Source of the DNA: Alloalcanivorax gelatiniphagus
GTDB lineage: Bacteria > Pseudomonadota > Gammaproteobacteria > Pseudomonadales > Alcanivoracaceae
Direction of reading: 5' to 3'
NCBI RefSeq assembly: GCF_005938655.1
Contig: NZ_VCQT01000038.1
Span: 62,001-126,000 of the forward strand
DNA: 64,000 nucleotides
The notes under the pieces are model-generated. The model worked only from the letters and a program-made list of their open reading frames with translations. It made no database searches and was not told the origin of the DNA. This document shows, piece after piece, positions 2,962 through 14,183 of the stretch (within the stretch, counting starts at the first letter, position 1; each line of letters begins with the position of its first letter). The position numbers and the translations under genes were made by a program.

Positions 2962-3300
2962 ATGTCCGACATTCTCAATCAGCTCCATCAGGTGCTCGAA
3001 GCCCGCAAGGGCGCCGACCCGGATTCATCCTATGTGGCCAGCCTGTATGGCAAGGGCCTCAACAAGATTCTCGAAAAGGTCGGTGAGGAAGCGGTGGAAA
3101 CCCTGCTCGCCGCCCGTGACACCGAAGCCGGTGGCGACCCGGAAGCCCTGATCGGCGAAACCGCCGACCTGTGGTTCCATTCCATGGTCATGCTGGCGCA
3201 CCTGGGCCTCGGCCCGGAACAGGTTCTGGCCAGGCTGGAGCAACGCTTCGGTCTTTCCGGACACGATGAAAAAGCCGCGCGGAAAGCGCGAGGAGAATAG
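2962..3300 (+). CDS. hisE: Phosphoribosyl-ATP pyrophosphatase HisE
   Basis: 112 residues, single-domain MazG-like pyrophosphohydrolase that carries out the second step of histidine synthesis. The helical metal-binding signature is visible in [13 protein letters not shown] and [14 protein letters not shown], which supply the acidic residues that hold magnesium. The ATG is preceded at a distance by an unremarkable leader. hisI, which makes the next step and is usually fused to or beside hisE, is not seen here. The tatA ribosome site (GAGGAGA) lies inside the 3' end of hisE, so hisE and tatA are probably cotranscribed. Confidence 0.93.
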
Positions 3301-3302
3301 CT

Positions 3303-3533
3303 ATGCTTGGCGGTATCAGTATCTGGCAATTGCTTATCGTTCTGGCCATCGTGGTGCTGCTGTTCGGCACCAAGAAACTGCGCAATATCGGCAGCGACCT
3401 GGGCGGCGCGGTGAAAGGCTTCAAGGACTCGGTCAAGGACGGCGAGAAGGAACAGGATCAGAAGCGCATCGCCGGCGACGACGATGGCGAAGGACAGACC
3501 CGGGAACAGGAAAAGCACAAGGACCAGGCGTAA
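3303..3533 (+). CDS. tatA: Sec-independent translocase subunit TatA
   Basis: 76 residues with the TatA plan: a short periplasmic N-terminus, one transmembrane helix ([14 protein letters not shown]), the FGTKKL hinge, an amphipathic helix ([11 protein letters not shown]) and a charged tail ending in KHKDQA. TatA forms the oligomeric pore for export of folded twin-arginine proteins. It begins 2 bases after hisE and is followed by tatB and tatC on the same strand. Confidence 0.95.
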
Positions 3534-3581
3534 CGCGCCCCGGCCGGACACGGCCCGGTTTTATTATGAGAGCCCCGCCGT

Positions 3582-3986
3582 ATGTTTGATATCGGCTTTT
3601 CCGAGCTGACGCTGATTTTCGTGATCGGCCTGGTGGTGCTGGGCCCCGAGCGCCTGCCCAAGGCGGCGCGCACGGTGGGCTATTGGATGGGCCGCGCCCG
3701 TTCCACCTTCAACCATCTGCGCAGCGAACTAGAGCGCGAAGCGCTCAATCAGGACATGCGCGAGCGCATGGAAAGCCAGATGCGCGAGATGGGCCTGGAC
3801 GAAGACAGTATCCGCGAGGCCCGCGACAACCTGCTGTCCGAACAGGACGTGGCCCGCGCCCGCCGCCGGCCCCAGACCCTGGAACACGACCAGCCCCAGG
3901 AACACGAGCCCCTGGAACACGACAGCGGCGATAAGCCAGCGCCCACCGCGGAACACCCCGAGTCCGAGAAGAAATCGAATGACTGA
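3582..3986 (+). CDS. tatB: Sec-independent translocase subunit TatB
   Basis: 134 residues, starting MFDIGFSEL with the TatB-specific glutamate in the transmembrane helix and the GPERLP hinge, followed by a long amphipathic helix and an acidic, low-complexity C-terminal tail rich in E, H and P. TatB with TatC forms the twin-arginine signal receptor. The last codons overlap the tatC ATG by 8 bases, which implies translational coupling. Confidence 0.95.
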
Positions 3987-4746
3987 GGAACACGGGGAGG
4001 ACACCCCGCAAACATTGATCTCCCATCTGCTGGAACTGCGCAACCGCCTGCTCAAGGCGGTGATCGCCGTGCTGGTGGTGTTTCTCTGCCTGTTCTACTT
4101 CTCCCGGGAGCTCTACACCCTGGTGGCGCGGCCGCTGATGGACGTGATGCCGGCGGGCACCCAGATGATCGCCACCGGCGTGGCCTCGCCGTTCCTGGCG
4201 CCGTTCAAGCTGACCCTGTATCTGAGCATCTTCGGCGCCATGCCGTTCATCCTGCATCAGGCCTGGGCGTTCGTGGCGCCGGGGCTGTACAAGCACGAAA
4301 AACGGCTGGCGGTGCCGCTGCTGGTAAGCAGCGTGTTGCTGTTCTACGCCGGCGCCGCCTTTGCCTACTTCGTGGTGTTCCCGCTGATGTTCCAGTTCTT
4401 CACCACGGTGGCCCCGGAAGGGGTGGCGGTGACCACCGACATCAGCAGCTACCTGGACTTCGTGCTGGCCCTGTTCCTGGCCTTTGGCTTCGCCTTCGAA
4501 CTGCCCATCGCCATCGTGCTGCTGGTGACCACCGGCCTGGTCACGGTGGAGAAACTGTCCGCCTCGCGGGCCTATGTGGTGGTCGGCTGCTTCGTGGTTG
4601 GCATGCTGCTGACGCCGCCGGACATTGTCAGCCAGACCCTGCTGGCGGTGCCCATGTGGCTGCTGTTCGAGATCGGCCTGCTGTTCGGCCGCGCCGTGGA
4701 GCGGCGCAAGGACGAGGACCCGGCGCCGGAAGCCGACTCCGACTGA
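3979..4746 (+). CDS. tatC: Sec-independent translocase subunit TatC
   Basis: 255 residues with six predicted transmembrane helices and the TatC hallmarks: the cytoplasmic N-terminus with [12 protein letters not shown] and the conserved F-E pair in [11 protein letters not shown]. It recognises the twin-arginine signal peptide. The start overlaps tatB. The gene ends convergently with the lipoprotein gene on the minus strand; the 31 bases between them contain only a small GC hairpin without a T tract. Confidence 0.96.
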
Positions 4747-4777
4747 GCCGGCCTTAACGTAGCCGGGCCTGACAGGG

Positions 4778-5740
4778 TCAGAAGCGGTAGGCGCCCACCG
4801 GCGTGATACCGATCTCGCCGGCCGGCTCATCGGCCTCCACCGCCTCTCGGGACACCGGCGCCGGCGGCACCTGGGTAACCGGGGCCGACGCCGAGGGCGC
4901 CCTGGCCATGCAGCCATTTTGCTCCAGAAACGCCAGTAACCGGTCGCGCACCGCCGGATCACGGGTGCCCTGGCCGTGGCCGCCCTTGAGGGCCTGGAAG
5001 GTCTTCGGCTCGGCGGCGGCCTGGAACAGCGCCTCCCCCTGACGGAACGGAATCACCGGATCTTCCCGGCTGTGCAGAATCAGCAACGGCCGGGGCGCCA
5101 GCTCGGCAATGTGCCGCTCCGGATCAAGATCGCGGGCGGGCAGGGTCGGCAGCACCATCCAGCGCAATGGCCACAGCAACCAGCTGCGCCGCATCACATC
5201 GTCGGCGATGCCCCGGTAGCTGGCGAAGCTGGCCTCCAGCATCACGCAATCCACGCGGCCGCGATTGTCGTCCCGGGCCAGCACGCCGGTGCCCAGGGCA
5301 CCGCCCAGGCTCTGACCGAACATCACCAGCGGCTTGCCGTCCAGGCGGCCGGAGGCGCTCAGCCAGTCCAACCCGAGCTGCACGTCGGCCAGGGCGCCGG
5401 GCAGGTCCGGGCTGCCCTCGGACAGGCCATAGCCCCGGTAATCCAGCAGAAAGACGTTGTAGCCCCGCTCCGGCAGCCAGTGCACGTTCATCAGATGGGT
5501 GCTGATGTTCTCCGCGTTGCCGTGCAGAAAGTAGACGGTGCCGCGCTGGTAGCCCCGGGCCGGCAACCACCAACCGTGCAGGCGCAGGCCGTCCGGATGG
5601 ATCAGCACCACATCCTCATAGGCCAGCCCCTGGCGGGCCGGGTTCTGCACCCAGGGTTTGGCCGGATAGAAGAACAGGCTGCTGCAGCCGCTCAGAACCG
5701 CCAGCAACACACCGCTGAGAATCAATCCAAGAGCTTTCAA
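4778..5740 (-). CDS. Alpha/beta-hydrolase lipoprotein
   Basis: 320 residues starting at a TTG codon (MKALGL) behind a GGGGA element; no better start is visible. Residues 1-19 form a lipoprotein signal ending in the lipobox VLSGC, so the protein is probably tethered to a membrane facing the periplasm. The body is a serine hydrolase of the abhydrolase type: oxyanion motif HGNAEN, nucleophile elbow GQSLGG, and candidate acid and histidine in HSREDPVIPF and KGGHGQG. The substrate is unknown. The C-terminal 50 residues are proline/valine rich. It shares direction and a 31-base gap with the DUF4105 gene upstream, so they may be cotranscribed. Confidence 0.85.
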   Translation of the reverse strand: MKALGLILSGVLLAVLSGCSSLFFYPAKPWVQNPARQGLAYEDVVLIHPDGLRLHGWWLPARGYQRGTVYFLHGNAENISTHLMNVHWLPERGYNVFLLDYRGYGLSEGSPDLPGALADVQLGLDWLSASGRLDGKPLVMFGQSLGGALGTGVLARDDNRGRVDCVMLEASFASYRGIADDVMRRSWLLWPLRWMVLPTLPARDLDPERHIAELAPRPLLILHSREDPVIPFRQGEALFQAAAEPKTFQALKGGHGQGTRDPAVRDRLLAFLEQNGCMARAPSASAPVTQVPPAPVSREAVEADEPAGEIGITPVGAYRF

Positions 5741-5771
5741 TGATGTCCCCGTTTACCCGCGGTGCCGGTGT

Positions 5772-7586
5772 TCAGTCGAAATACCAGCGCCATTGCAGTT
5801 TGAATTCGGTCTCGCCGTCGCCGCGCCAGCCTTCCCGCTCCACTTCGGCGCGCAGGCCCTGCTGGCCGGTCAGGGCGTACTGCACCGCCAGGGTGGAGCG
5901 GTAGCGGTAGACGTCGTTGACGAAGTAATGGCCGGCCCCGCCGGCCTGCCATTGCCAACGCCCGGCATGATACAGCAAGCCCGCCTCGGCGCCGCCCCCG
6001 GTGGTGATCCAGGGCGCGAAGTCGCTGTTGTTCTCGGCGCGGGCGCTGGCCAGCAGATACGGCTGCAGGTTACCCAGGCGCCAGCTGGCGCCGGCGCCGC
6101 CCTGCACATAGCGGACCAGCCGCCGGCGCTCCGCCCAGGCCCGCTCCAGGCCGCCTTCCACGTACCAGCTCAGCGGCTTGGAGAAGCGATCCCGGGGCGC
6201 CAGGGAGCGGATGCTGACCACATCCAGGGCTTCCAGGTCCACCGCCTGGGACTCGGTGCTGCGCAGGGTGATGCCCAGGCCCTGGATCTGAGCCCCGGAC
6301 AGAAAGCCCCGGTTGTTGTCGAGCAGGTCATGGTAGGTCAGCCGGTAGCTGAACTCACCGAAGTCATCGCTACCGCGCTGGCCGCCGGCCACCGCCAGCA
6401 TCTGCGAGCCGTGGCCCTGTTCCGGCGGCACCCGTTCCACCGGCGCCGGATCCTGCACCGCCGGCAGCCGGTTGATCAGGCTGAGCAGGGCGAAGGAGCG
6501 GCCGGCCACGTCCTCGGAGCGCTGCGCCTTGCGGTTGACGAAACGCACGTAGCGGTAGGCGGTATGGGCCATCAGCGCCTGGCGCCGGGGCGGATAGGCC
6601 TGGAAGGCGGGCTCCTCCGAGCGCGCCGGGTCATCGGCCAGGCCCCGCGCCAGTGCCCGCTCCTCACTGCTCAGCTGGTCGCTGAAGGCGGTCAGCTCCT
6701 GCTCCTTGGACGGCCGGTAATGCCGCTCGGTGATCAGCCCCTCCTGGTCCAGGGCGCGCACCGTGTTCACCGGCAGCTCGGCGAACCGCAGCTCATCAAG
6801 CAGCCCGCCCTCCGGCCGCGCCACCTGGACCAGCTCCAACAGCCGGAACGAGCAGTTCTCGTCGAAGAAGTAGTAGTCGAAATTGATGTCCTTCAGTTCC
6901 CACAGGTGATCGATCATCCAATCGATCTCCCCCTGGTTCAGGTCCAGGCTGTACTCCCAGATATCGCGGCTTTCCATGTTGGAGTACTGCTGGATCTTCT
7001 GCACATAGGGCACCAGGTTGAAACGGCCCGGGTAACCGCCGGCCAGGCCACGGTAGATGTAGAACAGGGAGTTGTCCTGCTCGGTGGTGACGGCGCCGAA
7101 GTTGATCGCCCAGGACAGCCACACCGCGCTGTCATCGCCCTGGTCCAGACGCATCAGGGTGTGCCCGAACATGGACGAGGGGCTGTTCAGATAGGAGGCC
7201 GGGAATACCAGCACCGCGCGCTTGGCGTGCACCGCGGCGCGCCATTCCAGATAGTCGGCGCAATGGGCGAACGGGGTGTCATCCCGCCAGTTCAGTTGCT
7301 CGGCGAGAAAGCGATAACGGGCGGGGAAGCGGCAGCGCGCCGGCGCGTGGTCCGGCCGTAGGGCGAGCACCGTGGCCCGCAGTTCCGCCAGCGGGTCGTC
7401 GGCGCCCCGCTCGGCGAGAAAGAAATTGTCGTCGTCCACGTAGCTGCGCTGACGATCACGCAGGGTGGCGCCGGGATTGATATGCAACAGGGCCCGCCAG
7501 CGCGGTTGTTCGGCCAGGGCGTCCAGGTCGCCGGCCCAGGCCGGCACGCAAAAAAGCGCAACCACGCACAGCAGTGCGAAACGCAT
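5772..7586 (-). CDS. DUF4105 (Lnb-type) envelope protein with possible C-terminal beta-barrel
   Basis: 604 residues with a signal peptide (first about 18 residues, ending PAWA). The central part carries the Lnb N-terminal/DUF4105 pattern, including HTLMRLDQ and WAINFGA and a conserved DENCSFRLLELV block. These regions have been linked to NlpC/P60-like cysteine peptidase folds. The last 200 residues alternate aromatic and polar residues and end in a W-x-W-Y-F pattern, as in outer-membrane beta strands, so an outer-membrane barrel is plausible. The function is unknown. It is followed by the lipoprotein hydrolase on the same strand. Confidence 0.8.
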   Translation of the reverse strand: MRFALLCVVALFCVPAWAGDLDALAEQPRWRALLHINPGATLRDRQRSYVDDDNFFLAERGADDPLAELRATVLALRPDHAPARCRFPARYRFLAEQLNWRDDTPFAHCADYLEWRAAVHAKRAVLVFPASYLNSPSSMFGHTLMRLDQGDDSAVWLSWAINFGAVTTEQDNSLFYIYRGLAGGYPGRFNLVPYVQKIQQYSNMESRDIWEYSLDLNQGEIDWMIDHLWELKDINFDYYFFDENCSFRLLELVQVARPEGGLLDELRFAELPVNTVRALDQEGLITERHYRPSKEQELTAFSDQLSSEERALARGLADDPARSEEPAFQAYPPRRQALMAHTAYRYVRFVNRKAQRSEDVAGRSFALLSLINRLPAVQDPAPVERVPPEQGHGSQMLAVAGGQRGSDDFGEFSYRLTYHDLLDNNRGFLSGAQIQGLGITLRSTESQAVDLEALDVVSIRSLAPRDRFSKPLSWYVEGGLERAWAERRRLVRYVQGGAGASWRLGNLQPYLLASARAENNSDFAPWITTGGGAEAGLLYHAGRWQWQAGGAGHYFVNDVYRYRSTLAVQYALTGQQGLRAEVEREGWRGDGETEFKLQWRWYFD

Positions 7587-7617
7587 GAGGATGTCCGGGA
7601 AAAGCGGATACTAAAAA

Positions 7618-7641
7618 GCCCGCCCTCCATGGAGGGCGGGC
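7618..7641 (-). terminator. Intrinsic terminator of the DUF3015 gene
   Basis: A perfect 24-base palindrome (GCCCGCCCTCCA and its complement). On the minus strand it is followed directly by TTTTT. It lies 15 bases after the stop of the DUF3015 gene. Confidence 0.85.
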
Positions 7642-7655
7642 CCGGGCGAGCAGGC

Positions 7656-8135
7656 TTATACGTACTTGGCCAGCTTCTGGTCTTGCTGCATCACGGCGGT
7701 GATGTTCTGCATGACTTCGGCGGCGCTCACGTCCTGGTGCGGGAAGATGGCGGCGAAGTTGTCGTGCATCAGACCGTTGAAGTGGGAACGGTCCTGGGTG
7801 GAGATGCCCATGGAAACGGACAGCGCGGTCAGAGCTTCGCCCTGGCCGGTGGCCATGTCCTGAGCCACTTCCTCGAGCACGCCGTTCATGGACAGCAGGC
7901 TCTCACCGGAGTAGGTCAGCGCGCCGCTGGTGTCACAGCCGTTGGTGCCACTGGTCATGCCGAAAGTAGCGTTACCGGAGGTGCCGTTGACGATGGTCGC
8001 CAGCAGGTGCACCGGCATGCCGGATTTGCCTTCGAAAATCAGGTTACCCCAACCACAGCCGGGACCACCCGGTGCAACGGCGTGGGCGGAAAAAGAAGCA
8101 CCAAGCAGTGCCGCAGCCAGAAAAGCTCTTTTCAT
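7656..8135 (-). CDS. DUF3015-family secreted protein
   Basis: 159 residues from the chosen ATG. The frame extends 27 codons upstream, but MKRAFLAAALLG opens a clear signal peptide (cleavage after SAHA) with an AGGAGA ribosome site seven bases before it, so the inner start was taken. The mature part keeps the family look: GCGWGNLIFEGK, a paired cysteine further on (NGCDTSG) and a C-terminal helical region rich in Q and D. The function of DUF3015 is unknown; members are abundant small periplasmic proteins. It is monocistronic, with its own promoter and terminator. Confidence 0.82.
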   Translation of the reverse strand: MKRAFLAAALLGASFSAHAVAPGGPGCGWGNLIFEGKSGMPVHLLATIVNGTSGNATFGMTSGTNGCDTSGALTYSGESLLSMNGVLEEVAQDMATGQGEALTALSVSMGISTQDRSHFNGLMHDNFAAIFPHQDVSAAEVMQNITAVMQQDQKLAKYV

Positions 8136-8205
8136 GGGTCTGTCTCCTGTTATCAAAATGTTATCCATAAGCTCCCCCATGCGGTTCCCCGGGAGCCGAA
8201 GCTTC

Positions 8206-8233
8206 ATCATAAACAAGGGTCATGAGGTTGCAA
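8206..8233 (-). promoter_or_regulatory. Candidate sigma-70 promoter of the DUF3015 gene
   Basis: On the minus strand TTGCAA (8233-8228) and TATGAT (8211-8206) are separated by 16 bases, about 70 bases before the chosen start codon. The match is good, but promoters called by eye are uncertain. Confidence 0.4.
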
Positions 8234-8284
8234 TATAGCGGTGCCATGGAAATTGTCGGGCAACAAAAAGCAAGCGGACCTTGA

Positions 8285-8722
8285 TCACAACTCCAACAGA
8301 AAGGTGACCGGGCCGTCGTTGATCAGGGAAACCTGCATATCCGCGCCGAACCGGCCCCGGGCCACCGGCACGCCGTGGCCGGCGACGGCGTCGATCAACG
8401 CCAGATAAAGGGGCTCGGCCAACTCCGGCGGGGCGGCGCTGGAGAAGGACGGGCGCCGCCCCTTGCGGGTGTCCGCCGCCAGGGTGAACTGGGAAACCAG
8501 CAGCACCGCGCCGCCGGCCTCGCGCACGTCGCGGTTCATGCGGCCCTGTTCATCGCTGAACACCCGGTAGCTCACCAGCCGCTCGGCCATGCGCGTGACC
8601 GCCGGGTGGTCATCGTGTTTTTCCATGCCGACCAACACCAGCAGACCGGCGCCGATCTCGCCGACGGTATCACCCTCAACGCGGACGGCGGCCTCGCGCA
8701 CCCGCTGTAAAAGCAGTTTCAT
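8285..8722 (-). CDS. dtd: D-aminoacyl-tRNA deacylase
   Basis: 145 residues, the exact family size. It hydrolyses D-amino acids (and glycine from tRNA-Ala) mischarged on tRNA. Both active-site signatures are present: SQFTL near residue 78-82 and the C-terminal NDGPVTF, with the cross-subunit Gly-cisPro dipeptide in GPVT. In Pseudomonas it lies next to proline iminopeptidase; here a DUF3261 gene sits between them. It is divergent from that gene with 47 bases between start codons. Confidence 0.95.
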   Translation of the reverse strand: MKLLLQRVREAAVRVEGDTVGEIGAGLLVLVGMEKHDDHPAVTRMAERLVSYRVFSDEQGRMNRDVREAGGAVLLVSQFTLAADTRKGRRPSFSSAAPPELAEPLYLALIDAVAGHGVPVARGRFGADMQVSLINDGPVTFLLEL

Positions 8723-8769: not shown

Positions 8770-9336
8770 ATGAAAATGCTTCCCCTGCTGCTGACACTGA
8801 TGCTCGCCGGCTGCGCCCTGTGGGCCGGCCCCGACGCCGTGCCCCGGCCGCTGGCACCGGCGTTCGGCGAGTACCGCGACTTCCAGCGCGACCTGACCAT
8901 CCGCCTGGCGGATGGCCGCACGGTGCGGTACCGGGTGGCACTGGCGCTGACGCCGGAGAGTTCGCGGATCAGTCTGTTGGACGCCGACGGCAAGGCGGTG
9001 CTGACCTACCAGCAGAGCCCCGGGCGCAGCGAGATCAGCCGCACGCCGGCGTTGCCGCCGGGGCTGTCCGCCGACGCCCTGATCGGCGATATCCAGCTGG
9101 CGTTCTGGCCGCGCGCCCGTCTGGAGCGCATGCTGCGCCCGCCCTGGCGGCTGGAGCGCCTGGACGACACCCTGCGCCTCTACGAGGGGCGCAGGGTGGA
9201 GGCGCGGGTGTCGTTCCAGGGGCCCAACCCCAAGCTCACGACGATCCCTGTGTATAACGCCCGCTACGATTACCTTCTGCTGCTCGTGCCGCCCGGGCTG
9301 TCAGCGCCTTCACCGCCCGCACCAGAGCCTGACTGA
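8770..9336 (+). CDS. DUF3261-family lipoprotein
   Basis: 188 residues from an ATG that opens a lipoprotein signal (MKMLPLLLTLMLAGC, lipobox LAGC); a longer frame from 8749 was rejected because it would place charged residues before the signal. The mature domain matches the DUF3261 pattern (RYRVALALTP, LLDADGKAVLTYQQSPG, DIQLAFWP, PPWRLERLDD). The function is unknown; relatives occur in fatty-acid and aryl-polyene clusters, but no such genes are adjacent here. The last 101 bases overlap the 3' end of the convergent proline iminopeptidase gene. Confidence 0.8.
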   Translation: MKMLPLLLTLMLAGCALWAGPDAVPRPLAPAFGEYRDFQRDLTIRLADGRTVRYRVALALTPESSRISLLDADGKAVLTYQQSPGRSEISRTPALPPGLSADALIGDIQLAFWPRARLERMLRPPWRLERLDDTLRLYEGRRVEARVSFQGPNPKLTTIPVYNARYDYLLLLVPPGLSAPSPPAPEPD

Positions 9337-10207
9337 TGCCCGGCTCGGCGGATGAGTGCCCGGCCGCCGCCACCCAGTGCAGCCGGCTGTCCGGCAGGGC
9401 CCGGTGCAGCAGCCAGGCCTGTTCCGGCGGGCACACCATGTCATAGCGCCCGTGCACGATTTCCACCGGGCATTGAATCCGGTGGGCGCGGGGCAGGATC
9501 GGTTCATCGAGAAAGCCGTCGTTGACGAAGTAATGGGTCTCCAGCTTGGCCATGGCCCCGGCGTTGTGGTCCACGTTCAGTTCCGGCGGCGGCGTCAGGC
9601 TCGACAGCCGCGCCTCCCACAGGGTCCATTCCCGGGCCAGCTGCTCGCCGTCCGGACCGTCCAGGGCGCGGTGATAGCGCGTCAGCAGATCACCCTCCCC
9701 GTCCGGCAACGCGGACAGCAAACGGTGCCAGTGGTCCGGGTAGAAGCGGCCGGCGCCGCCTTCGGTGTAGAGCCAGTCGATGTCCTGGCGGCGGCACAGG
9801 AACACGCCCCGTAACACCAGCCCGGCCACCGCCGCCGGGTACGCCAGCGCATAGGCCAGCGCCAGGGTGACGCCCCAGGAACCGCCCAGCACCACCTCCC
9901 AGCGGGGCACCTTCAGGTGCTCACGGATGCGCTCGATGTCGTCCACCAGATCCGGCAGGGTGTTGTGGTCGGTACCCGCGTAGGGCTCGCTGCGCCCGGC
10001 GCCGCGCTGGTCGTAAACGACAATGCGGAACCGATGCGGATCGAACAACCGCCGCAACAACGGCGAACTGCCACCCCCCGGCCCCCCATGCAAAGCCACC
10101 ACCGGCACCCCATCCGGATTGCCGCTCTCCTCCACATAGAGACGATGACCATTCCCCACGTCCAGGAATTCACGATGATAGGGTTCAAGCGGCGGGAACA
10201 GGGACAT
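9236..10207 (-). CDS. pip: Proline iminopeptidase
   Basis: 323 residues from ATG (MSLFPPLEPYHREFLDVG, the usual N-terminus); an ATG three codons earlier (10216) is equally possible. It releases N-terminal proline from peptides and belongs to peptidase family S33. Visible motifs are HGGPGGG (oxyanion), DQRGAGRS, the nucleophile elbow GGSWG, and the acid/histidine in HGRYDMVCPP and AAGHSS. The last 20 or so residues (after KALTARAA) exceed the family and are read through the antisense end of the DUF3261 gene. Confidence 0.93.
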   Translation of the reverse strand: MSLFPPLEPYHREFLDVGNGHRLYVEESGNPDGVPVVALHGGPGGGSSPLLRRLFDPHRFRIVVYDQRGAGRSEPYAGTDHNTLPDLVDDIERIREHLKVPRWEVVLGGSWGVTLALAYALAYPAAVAGLVLRGVFLCRRQDIDWLYTEGGAGRFYPDHWHRLLSALPDGEGDLLTRYHRALDGPDGEQLAREWTLWEARLSSLTPPPELNVDHNAGAMAKLETHYFVNDGFLDEPILPRAHRIQCPVEIVHGRYDMVCPPEQAWLLHRALPDSRLHWVAAAGHSSAEPGISQALVRAVKALTARAARAAEGNRSGRYTQGSS

Positions 10208-10284
10208 AAGCGGCATCCACGGGGAAAGATGCGAACAGCTTAGCGGGGTCGGGCGCGGGCGGCCAGGAGCGCAGGGAAGGCGCG

Positions 10285-10312
10285 GTTGAAAGTTAAAAGT
10301 TAAAAGTTGAAA
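10285..10312. repeat. Heptamer repeat block A (GTTRAAA x4)
   Basis: Four consecutive 7-base units GTTGAAA, GTTAAAA, GTTAAAA, GTTGAAA with no gaps. It forms a near-perfect inverted pair (one mismatch in 28) with block C at 10433-10460. It lies in the 320-base gene-free stretch between pip and ntrC. Confidence 0.9.
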
Positions 10313-10366
10313 CGCGGGACAGGGTGGTGGGCCGGCTCGCCCGTGCCCGCGCCTGCCGGCGGGCCG

Positions 10367-10401
10367 CAAGCCTCAAGCTGCAAGCCTCAAGCTACAAACC
10401 A
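10367..10401. repeat. Heptamer repeat block B (CAAGCYN x5)
   Basis: Five 7-base units CAAGCCT, CAAGCTG, CAAGCCT, CAAGCTA, CAAACCA. The same unit appears in opposite orientation in block D at 10505-10525, so the order is A-B-A'-B'. Confidence 0.88.
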
Positions 10402-10432
10402 GGCACGGCCGACGAAGTTACCGAGGCGCCCC

Positions 10433-10460
10433 TTTCAACTTTTAACTTTAAACTTTCAAC
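10433..10460. repeat. Heptamer repeat block C (inverted copy of block A)
   Basis: Units TTTCAAC, TTTTAAC, TTTAAAC, TTTCAAC: the reverse complement of block A with one mismatch, 120 bases away. Confidence 0.9.
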
Positions 10461-10504
10461 CGCCCGCCAACCTGCACGGCACCACCCAATCCACCACCCT
10501 GCCT

Positions 10505-10525
10505 GAAGCTTGCAGCTTGCAGCCG
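10505..10525. repeat. Heptamer repeat block D (inverted copy of block B unit)
   Basis: Units GAAGCTT, GCAGCTT, GCAGCCG: reverse complement of the block B unit, ending two bases before the ntrC stop codon. Confidence 0.8.
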
Positions 10526-13986: not shown

Positions 13987-14176
13987 CACAAAAAAACGCA
14001 GGGAGCGTTTTTTGACGTCGCGATAGCGACGGTCCGCAGGATGTCCTGCCAGGGATGGTGGACACAAAAAATCGTCGGGAACGATTTTTGACGTCGCGAA
14101 GCGACGGTCCGAAGGATGCCCGCCAGGGATGGTGGACACAAAAAAACGCAGGGAGCGTTTTTTTGACGTCGCGAAG
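13987..14176. repeat. 75-bp tandem repeat with covarying hairpins (2.5 copies)
   Basis: Units start at 13987, 14063 and 14137 (periods 76 and 74); the third is cut at 14176 where a REP element begins. Each unit holds a hairpin flanked by A and T tracts (stem ACGC/GCGT in units 1 and 3, TCGT/ACGA in unit 2) and a second stem CGTCGC-loop-GCGACG. The stem differences are compensatory. The repeat fills most of the gene-free stretch 13919-14335. Confidence 0.9.
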
Positions 14177-14183
14177 CCATCTC

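What the first reader, a model, noticed from the sequence alone, without database searches (positions are those of the whole stretch)
10285..10525. Period-7 repeat array in the order A-B-A'-B' between pip and ntrC
Four gap-free blocks of heptamers (GTTRAAA x4, CAAGCYN x5 and their inverted copies) sit in a 240-base interval. Blocks A and C match in inverted orientation with one mismatch in 28. This is neither a REP nor a CRISPR and could fold as nested hairpins or bind a protein with a 7-base step.
Basis: seen in the sequence. Interest (0 to 1): 0.65.

Follow-up and report, generated by a model that had tools for sequence, protein, structure and literature searches.

The report
Dispersed hairpin element with heptamer arms
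The odd repeat array between two genes is one copy of a family of perhaps 200 similar DNA hairpin elements scattered between genes of this Alloalcanivorax bacterium and its relatives; their arms are built of 7-base units with one free base, their middles have flipped between species, and they have come and gone at the ends of genes.

Summary
The four heptamer blocks are real and far beyond chance. They are not a private array but one copy of a dispersed family, about 200 copies if the 844 kb sampled is typical of the 4.2 Mb Alloalcanivorax genome. Each element is an inverted pair of heptamer arrays (A = AAAGTTN, B = CAAGCTN) around a GC-rich interior. All 40 groups in the sample lie between genes, often directly at stop codons. 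The window copy is a composite (B+ A+ B- A- on the pip strand), absent from the same gap in A. marinus NMRL4 and another close relative. In relatives the same gene-end slots hold other heptamer flavours (CAGGATN, CACGCNN), REP doublets or nothing. Between orthologous arms the seventh base differs at 39% of sites and the hexamer core at 3.9% (p = 4e-15), and the interior is inverted in 4 of 9 comparable elements. So the hexamers are constrained, probably because something reads them in 7-nt steps, and the arms support inversion. I read it as a non-autonomous, REPIN- or MITE-like hairpin element; no mobilising enzyme was found. Heptamer arrays and heptamer-built stems are known elsewhere; I found no earlier report of multi-flavour, flipping, inverted-pair elements. 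New variant of a known kind.

The parts
10284..10524 (.). Whole composite element; on the pip/ntrC strand (minus) it reads B+ A+ B- A-, with the outermost B arm of the full five-arm form missing
   Evidence: Same arm order and ~70-79 bp arm spacing as other copies in the genome, e.g. C3:8315-8577; absent in A. marinus NMRL4 and G003
10285..10312 (+). A arm, AAAGTTN heptamers (GTTGAAA GTTAAAA GTTAAAA GTTGAAA)
10313..10351 (+). Alpha hairpin of the A element (CGCGGG ... GTGCCCGCG)
   Evidence: Recurs next to one A arm in most copies read
10366..10399 (+). Inner B arm, CAAGCYN heptamers; in the composites read its orientation is fixed relative to the alpha end of the A element
10400..10431 (.). 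Beta side of the A element interior
   Evidence: Position equivalent to the beta end of other copies
10432..10460 (-). A' arm, inverted AAAGTTN heptamers, 1 mismatch in 28 to the A arm
10505..10523 (-). Outer B arm (about 2.4 units), ending 4 bp from the ntrC stop codon
10528..11952 (-). ntrC-like response regulator gene upstream of the element
   Evidence: ORF; named from sequence resemblance; its C-terminal end is conserved in relatives
9239..10207 (-). pip-like gene downstream of the element
   Evidence: ORF; relatives found

Best explanation
A non-autonomous, hairpin-forming dispersed element whose arms are inverted arrays of a degenerate heptamer (six constrained bases plus one free base). 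The copy here is a composite of A and B flavours sitting at the 3' end of ntrC. SHOWN: the element is one of a large family, lies only between genes, is absent from this gap in close relatives, and is gained, lost or replaced by other hairpin elements at the same gene-end slots; its arms change by exact 7-bp units; its interior is inverted between species in 4 of 9 comparable elements. INFERRED: (1) the arms pair in single-stranded DNA or in the transcript; (2) 7-nt slippage lengthens and shortens the arms; (3) pairing or template switching between the arms flips the interior; (4) an unidentified factor, most likely a mobilising nuclease or transposase working as RAYTs do for REPINs, reads the hexamers in 7-nt steps, different flavours being different specificities; (5) copies survive where they do least harm, just after stop codons.
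For: Family: 40 element groups in 844 kb, all intergenic by my own simple gene caller, many within 10 bp of a stop codon or supplying it. Fixed architecture: 29 A+...A- pairs, always + first, with shared alpha and beta subterminal motifs. Flavour C in relatives: by my count of the listing about 27 + then - pairs and none in reverse order. Empty sites: ntrC-pip gap 320 bp here, 76-77 bp without arrays in G002 (A. marinus NMRL4) and G003; joined flanks show further empty sites, e.g. C30:26266, C30:41729, C41b:182325. Slot exchange: C30:27331 is B here, a REP doublet in G002 and CACGCNN in G003; C30:50459 and C41b:154785 are A here and CAGGATN in G003. Flips: C30:135497, C11:149588, C41b:19431, C3:5414. 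Constraint: the free base differs at 27 of 69 sites, the core at 17 of 433. The free base is not matched between arms of one element (p = 0.36), so perfect arm pairing is not what is kept. Folding z-scores -3.1 and -4.6.
Against: No target-site duplication is evident and some junctions replace a few target bases. No autonomous element or cognate enzyme was found: ten sampled Y1/RAYT loci, including one of the two in this genome, have no arrays or GTAG REPs within about 1.5 kb, and PF01797 is present in genus members with and without arrays. No plasmid or phage hit. Interiors are very divergent, so copying from element to element is inferred from the arms and subterminal motifs. Elements shared by this genome and G003 but missing in G002 imply losses as well as gains.
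Confidence: 0.5

Rival explanations
1. The elements are kept for a function in the transcript: intercistronic or 3'-end RNA hairpins, the heptamers being binding sites of an RNA-binding protein, or the whole acting as terminator or mRNA stabiliser.
For: Placement directly at stop codons and between genes of operons; the GC-rich interior followed by a T-rich A' arm; slots shared with REP doublets and plain hairpins; MacGregor (PMC4679880) proposed translational regulation for TAACTGA heptamers.
Against: Occupancy is not conserved between species 9% apart; 9 of 40 groups lie between divergent genes; a simple terminator scan finds none at the window copy; flavour and interior orientation change between close species.
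Confidence: 0.25
2. Plain heptanucleotide simple-sequence repeats made by polymerase slippage, without selection or mobility.
For: Exact 7-bp unit gain and loss between orthologues and long homogeneous runs such as 13 x CAAGCTG. PMC4679880 reports an earlier proposal that 7 nt may favour polymerase slippage.
Against: Slippage does not make inverted pairs with shared subterminal motifs and fixed polarity at many loci, and does not make one position of seven change ten times faster than the others.
Confidence: 0.08
3. A dedicated invertible switch: the arms are recombination sites of a specific invertase and the interior orientation regulates neighbouring genes.
For: Interior inverted in 4 of 9 orthologous elements; roughly equal numbers of the two orientations in this genome by reading.
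Against: No promoter-like site at the window copy; no linked recombinase seen; small inversions between short inverted repeats can arise without a dedicated enzyme (own knowledge).
Confidence: 0.12

Closest known systems
REPINs and REP/BIME elements mobilised by RAYTs (PMC3116915, PMC3733652)
   Same: Many short inverted-pair hairpins per genome, intergenic, often just after genes and sometimes supplying the stop codon, several flavours per genome, clustering; here they even share slots.
   Different: No GTAG or CGTC tag, no 20-40 bp palindromic unit; arms are 7-bp tandem arrays; no linked RAYT in the loci checked.
Nostoc trnL intron P6b stems (PMC4476775)
   Same: Stem arms built of degenerate heptamers with free positions (TDNGATT, NNTGAGT); two classes that replace one another.
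   Different: One locus inside a group I intron, not a dispersed family with conserved interior motifs and flipping.
TAACTGA heptamer repeats of Beggiatoaceae, cyanobacteria and Bacteroidetes (PMC4679880); cyanobacterial heptanucleotide STRRs (from memory)
   Same: Short intergenic heptamer arrays in large numbers, some split by related heptamers; TAACTG is also the core of a flavour seen here in sister-genus genome G033.
   Different: Reported as direct repeats, mostly just upstream of start codons, with a single inverted case; no hairpin element, empty sites or inversion described in the passages read.
BrickBuilt MITE of Porphyromonas gingivalis (PMC4596501)
   Same: Intergenic miniature inverted-repeat element containing a tandem repeat.
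   Different: 23-nt unit in the core, not the arms; 19 copies.
Foldback elements of Drosophila (from memory)
   Same: Long inverted arms made of short tandem repeats.
   Different: Eukaryotic, much longer units and elements.

Membership tests
REPIN / REP (GTAG type) | Tagged (GTAG-like) palindromic REP unit in each arm | tested here: not met
   Arms read are heptamer arrays without such a unit; REP-like GTAGGAGCGG... repeats exist separately in this genome
REPIN / REP (GTAG type) | Cognate RAYT gene flanked by the repeat | tested here: inconclusive
   Ten Y1 loci, including one of two in this genome, show no arrays within 1.5 kb; the second own copy was not read
REPIN / REP (GTAG type) | Inverted pairs dispersed in extragenic space | tested here: met
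MITE (DDE-type) | Terminal inverted repeats around a short non-coding interior, dispersed copies | tested here: met
   empty sites
MITE (DDE-type) | Target-site duplication of fixed length | tested here: not met
   No consistent direct repeat at filled versus empty sites, judged by eye; one site has a possible 3-bp AGG
MITE (DDE-type) | Parent transposon with the same ends | tested here: inconclusive
   No A+...A- pair spanning a gene in the 844 kb sample; the rest of the genome was only pattern-searched
Heptanucleotide tandem repeats (STRR / TAACTGA type) | Intergenic tandem arrays of a 7-bp unit, many per genome | tested here: met
CRISPR | Direct repeats separated by unique spacers of regular length | tested here: not met
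   Units are gap-free and the arrays inverted in pairs
Intrinsic terminator | GC-rich stem followed at once by a run of T | tested here: not met
   None at the window copy; some other copies (C8b:7538) look terminator-like by eye

The most novel reading that the evidence does not exclude
Degenerate heptamer arrays in inverted pairs are a general class of bacterial hairpin element, with at least six flavours in this family (AAAGTTN, CAAGCTN, CAGGATN, CGAGTTN, AACAGTN, CACGCNN), all read in 7-nt steps by one unknown family of proteins that changes specificity and moves or flips the elements; the unexplained heptamer repeats of cyanobacteria and Beggiatoaceae would be members of the same class.
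Probability: 0.2. Interest if true: 0.85.

Novelty: new variant of a known kind. Interest (0 to 1): 0.62.

Why it matters
Heptanucleotide repeats have been noticed in unrelated bacteria without an accepted cause. Here they form the arms of a dispersed element with clear empty sites, flavour exchange at single gene-end slots and inverted interiors, and one position in seven changes ten times faster than the rest. That turns a curiosity into a testable question: which factor reads a hexamer every seven bases, and does it move or flip these elements? If many gene ends in a genus carry exchangeable hairpins, this also bears on how the 3' ends of bacterial transcripts evolve.

Tried and rejected
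CRISPR, GTAG REP and plain microsatellite readings were rejected (see membership test). A local RNA family was sought: no credible Rfam hit. Y1/RAYT as cognate enzyme: present throughout the genus, not linked to arrays in ten loci. Reverse transcriptase making 'hexamer plus random base': no RVT_1 match in this genome or G001, both array-rich. Maintenance of perfect arm pairing as the cause of core conservation: free bases do not match between arms in this genome (in the sister genus a weak match, p = 0.01, in a set chosen by exact core matches). Spread by plasmid or phage: no matches. Literature search by sequence letters: none. Genes around array clusters at C3 and in G343, read for a mobiliser, look like ordinary housekeeping genes (by eye).

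Full report
OBSERVATION. A and A' differ at one base in 28. The fourth block is shorter than implied (about 2.4 units), and the order A-B-A'-B' is crossed rather than nested. Period 7 is special in this genome: 76 arrays against 0 in a Markov control over 844 kb, with lags 8-14 near zero; lags 5 and 6 give 21 and 23, lag 5 being at its control level.

THE UNIT. A is AAAGTTN and B is CAAGCTN. They share the frame, differing at two of six positions. In this genome the core positions are 83-100% conserved across 58 arms while the three free positions are 74%, 41% and 57%. The arms of one element do not share their free bases more than arms of different elements (p = 0.36). In 19 comparisons of orthologous arms (mostly this genome against G003) the free base differs at 27 of 69 sites and the core at 17 of 433 (Fisher p = 4e-15); the flanks, mostly coding, differ at about 9%. 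The comparisons are not all independent and the alignment favours matches, but the contrast is tenfold.

THE ELEMENT. In 844 kb there are 40 groups of arms, 29 with an A+...A- pair, always in that order. One end carries CGCGGG...GTGCCCGCG (alpha), the other a GGTC-rich start and a CGGCCTTCGGCCG-like hairpin (beta); a minority have other interiors. Composites run B+ A+ B A- B- with arms about 75 bp apart, and the inner B has a fixed orientation relative to alpha. The window copy, read on the pip strand, is B+ A+ B- A-. All 40 groups are intergenic by a simple gene caller I wrote; many abut or supply a stop codon.

RELATIVES. pip hits name the genus as Alloalcanivorax. The ntrC-pip gap is 320 bp here and 76-77 bp without arrays in A. 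marinus NMRL4 (identical at pip to G002) and in G003; a more distant relative, G001, has a different A-only element there. Thus the window element was most simply gained after the split from G002/G003. The A and B patterns each occur in 13 of 57 relatives, in two genera only; in a class-wide sample of 369 genomes the B pattern appears in this genome and one other, G343, where arrays sit in successive gaps of an operon.

SLOT EXCHANGE AND FLIPS. Joined flanks of 28 elements were searched in G002 and G003. Slots are empty, hold a related A element, another flavour (CAGGATN at two sites, CACGCNN at one) or a REP doublet. G002 and G003 are sisters (95.4%, this genome 91.2% from each), so elements shared with G003 but missing in G002 are losses or replacements. 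Of nine A elements filled in both this genome and a relative with a readable interior, four have it inverted. For two the inversion was scored (forward 19.0 versus inverted 30.0; -0.5 versus 22.0); the other two were judged by the alpha/beta order. Arms differ by exact 7-bp units at several sites. In the sister genus further flavours CGAGTTN and AACAGTN occur as inverted pairs, and CAGGATN pairs recur across Alloalcanivorax, about 27 in + then - order and none reversed by my count.

MECHANISM. Shown: dispersal, intergenic placement, empty sites, exchange, 7-bp changes, flips, core constraint. Inferred: arm pairing, slippage, template switching or recombination between arms, and a factor reading the hexamers. 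The A-A' stem is predicted with z = -3.1 (RNA) and -4.6 (DNA). I favour a mobile, REPIN-like element because copies appear at unrelated sites with gaps in relatives and exchange places with REPs, but no enzyme is identified, no target duplication is evident, and an RNA-level role is a serious rival.

KNOWN WORK. REPINs (PMC3116915), tagged REPs and RAYT-linked inverted repeats (PMC3733652), BrickBuilt (PMC4596501), TAACTGA heptamers (PMC4679880) and heptamer-built trnL stems (PMC4476775) each share part of the picture. No paper holding the array sequences was found; most papers of subscription journals are not covered.

Noticed in passing
window 13987-14177: 2.5 copies of a 75-bp tandem repeat with a GCGTTTTTT stretch, near a DUF4124-like ORF.
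   Followed up: no
L108 / L150 (Alcanivorax sp. 24), ntrC-pip gap: The same gene gap in this relative holds an unrelated run of 7-bp units, GGCGTCC about 8 times, without an obvious inverted partner.
   Followed up: no
L063, L064, L065, L068 and other own loci: GTAG-type REP-like doublets (GTAGGAGCGGCTTCAGCCGCGAT) are common in this genome and lie next to or inside heptamer elements.
   Followed up: partly
L240 (G343), 3168-8688: CAAGCTN arrays in several successive gaps of a leucine-degradation-like operon of a distant gammaproteobacterium.
   Followed up: partly
G000:C30:50459 and C30:104867: The element appears to supply the stop codon of the upstream gene; in G002 the first gene reads on past the site.
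   Followed up: partly
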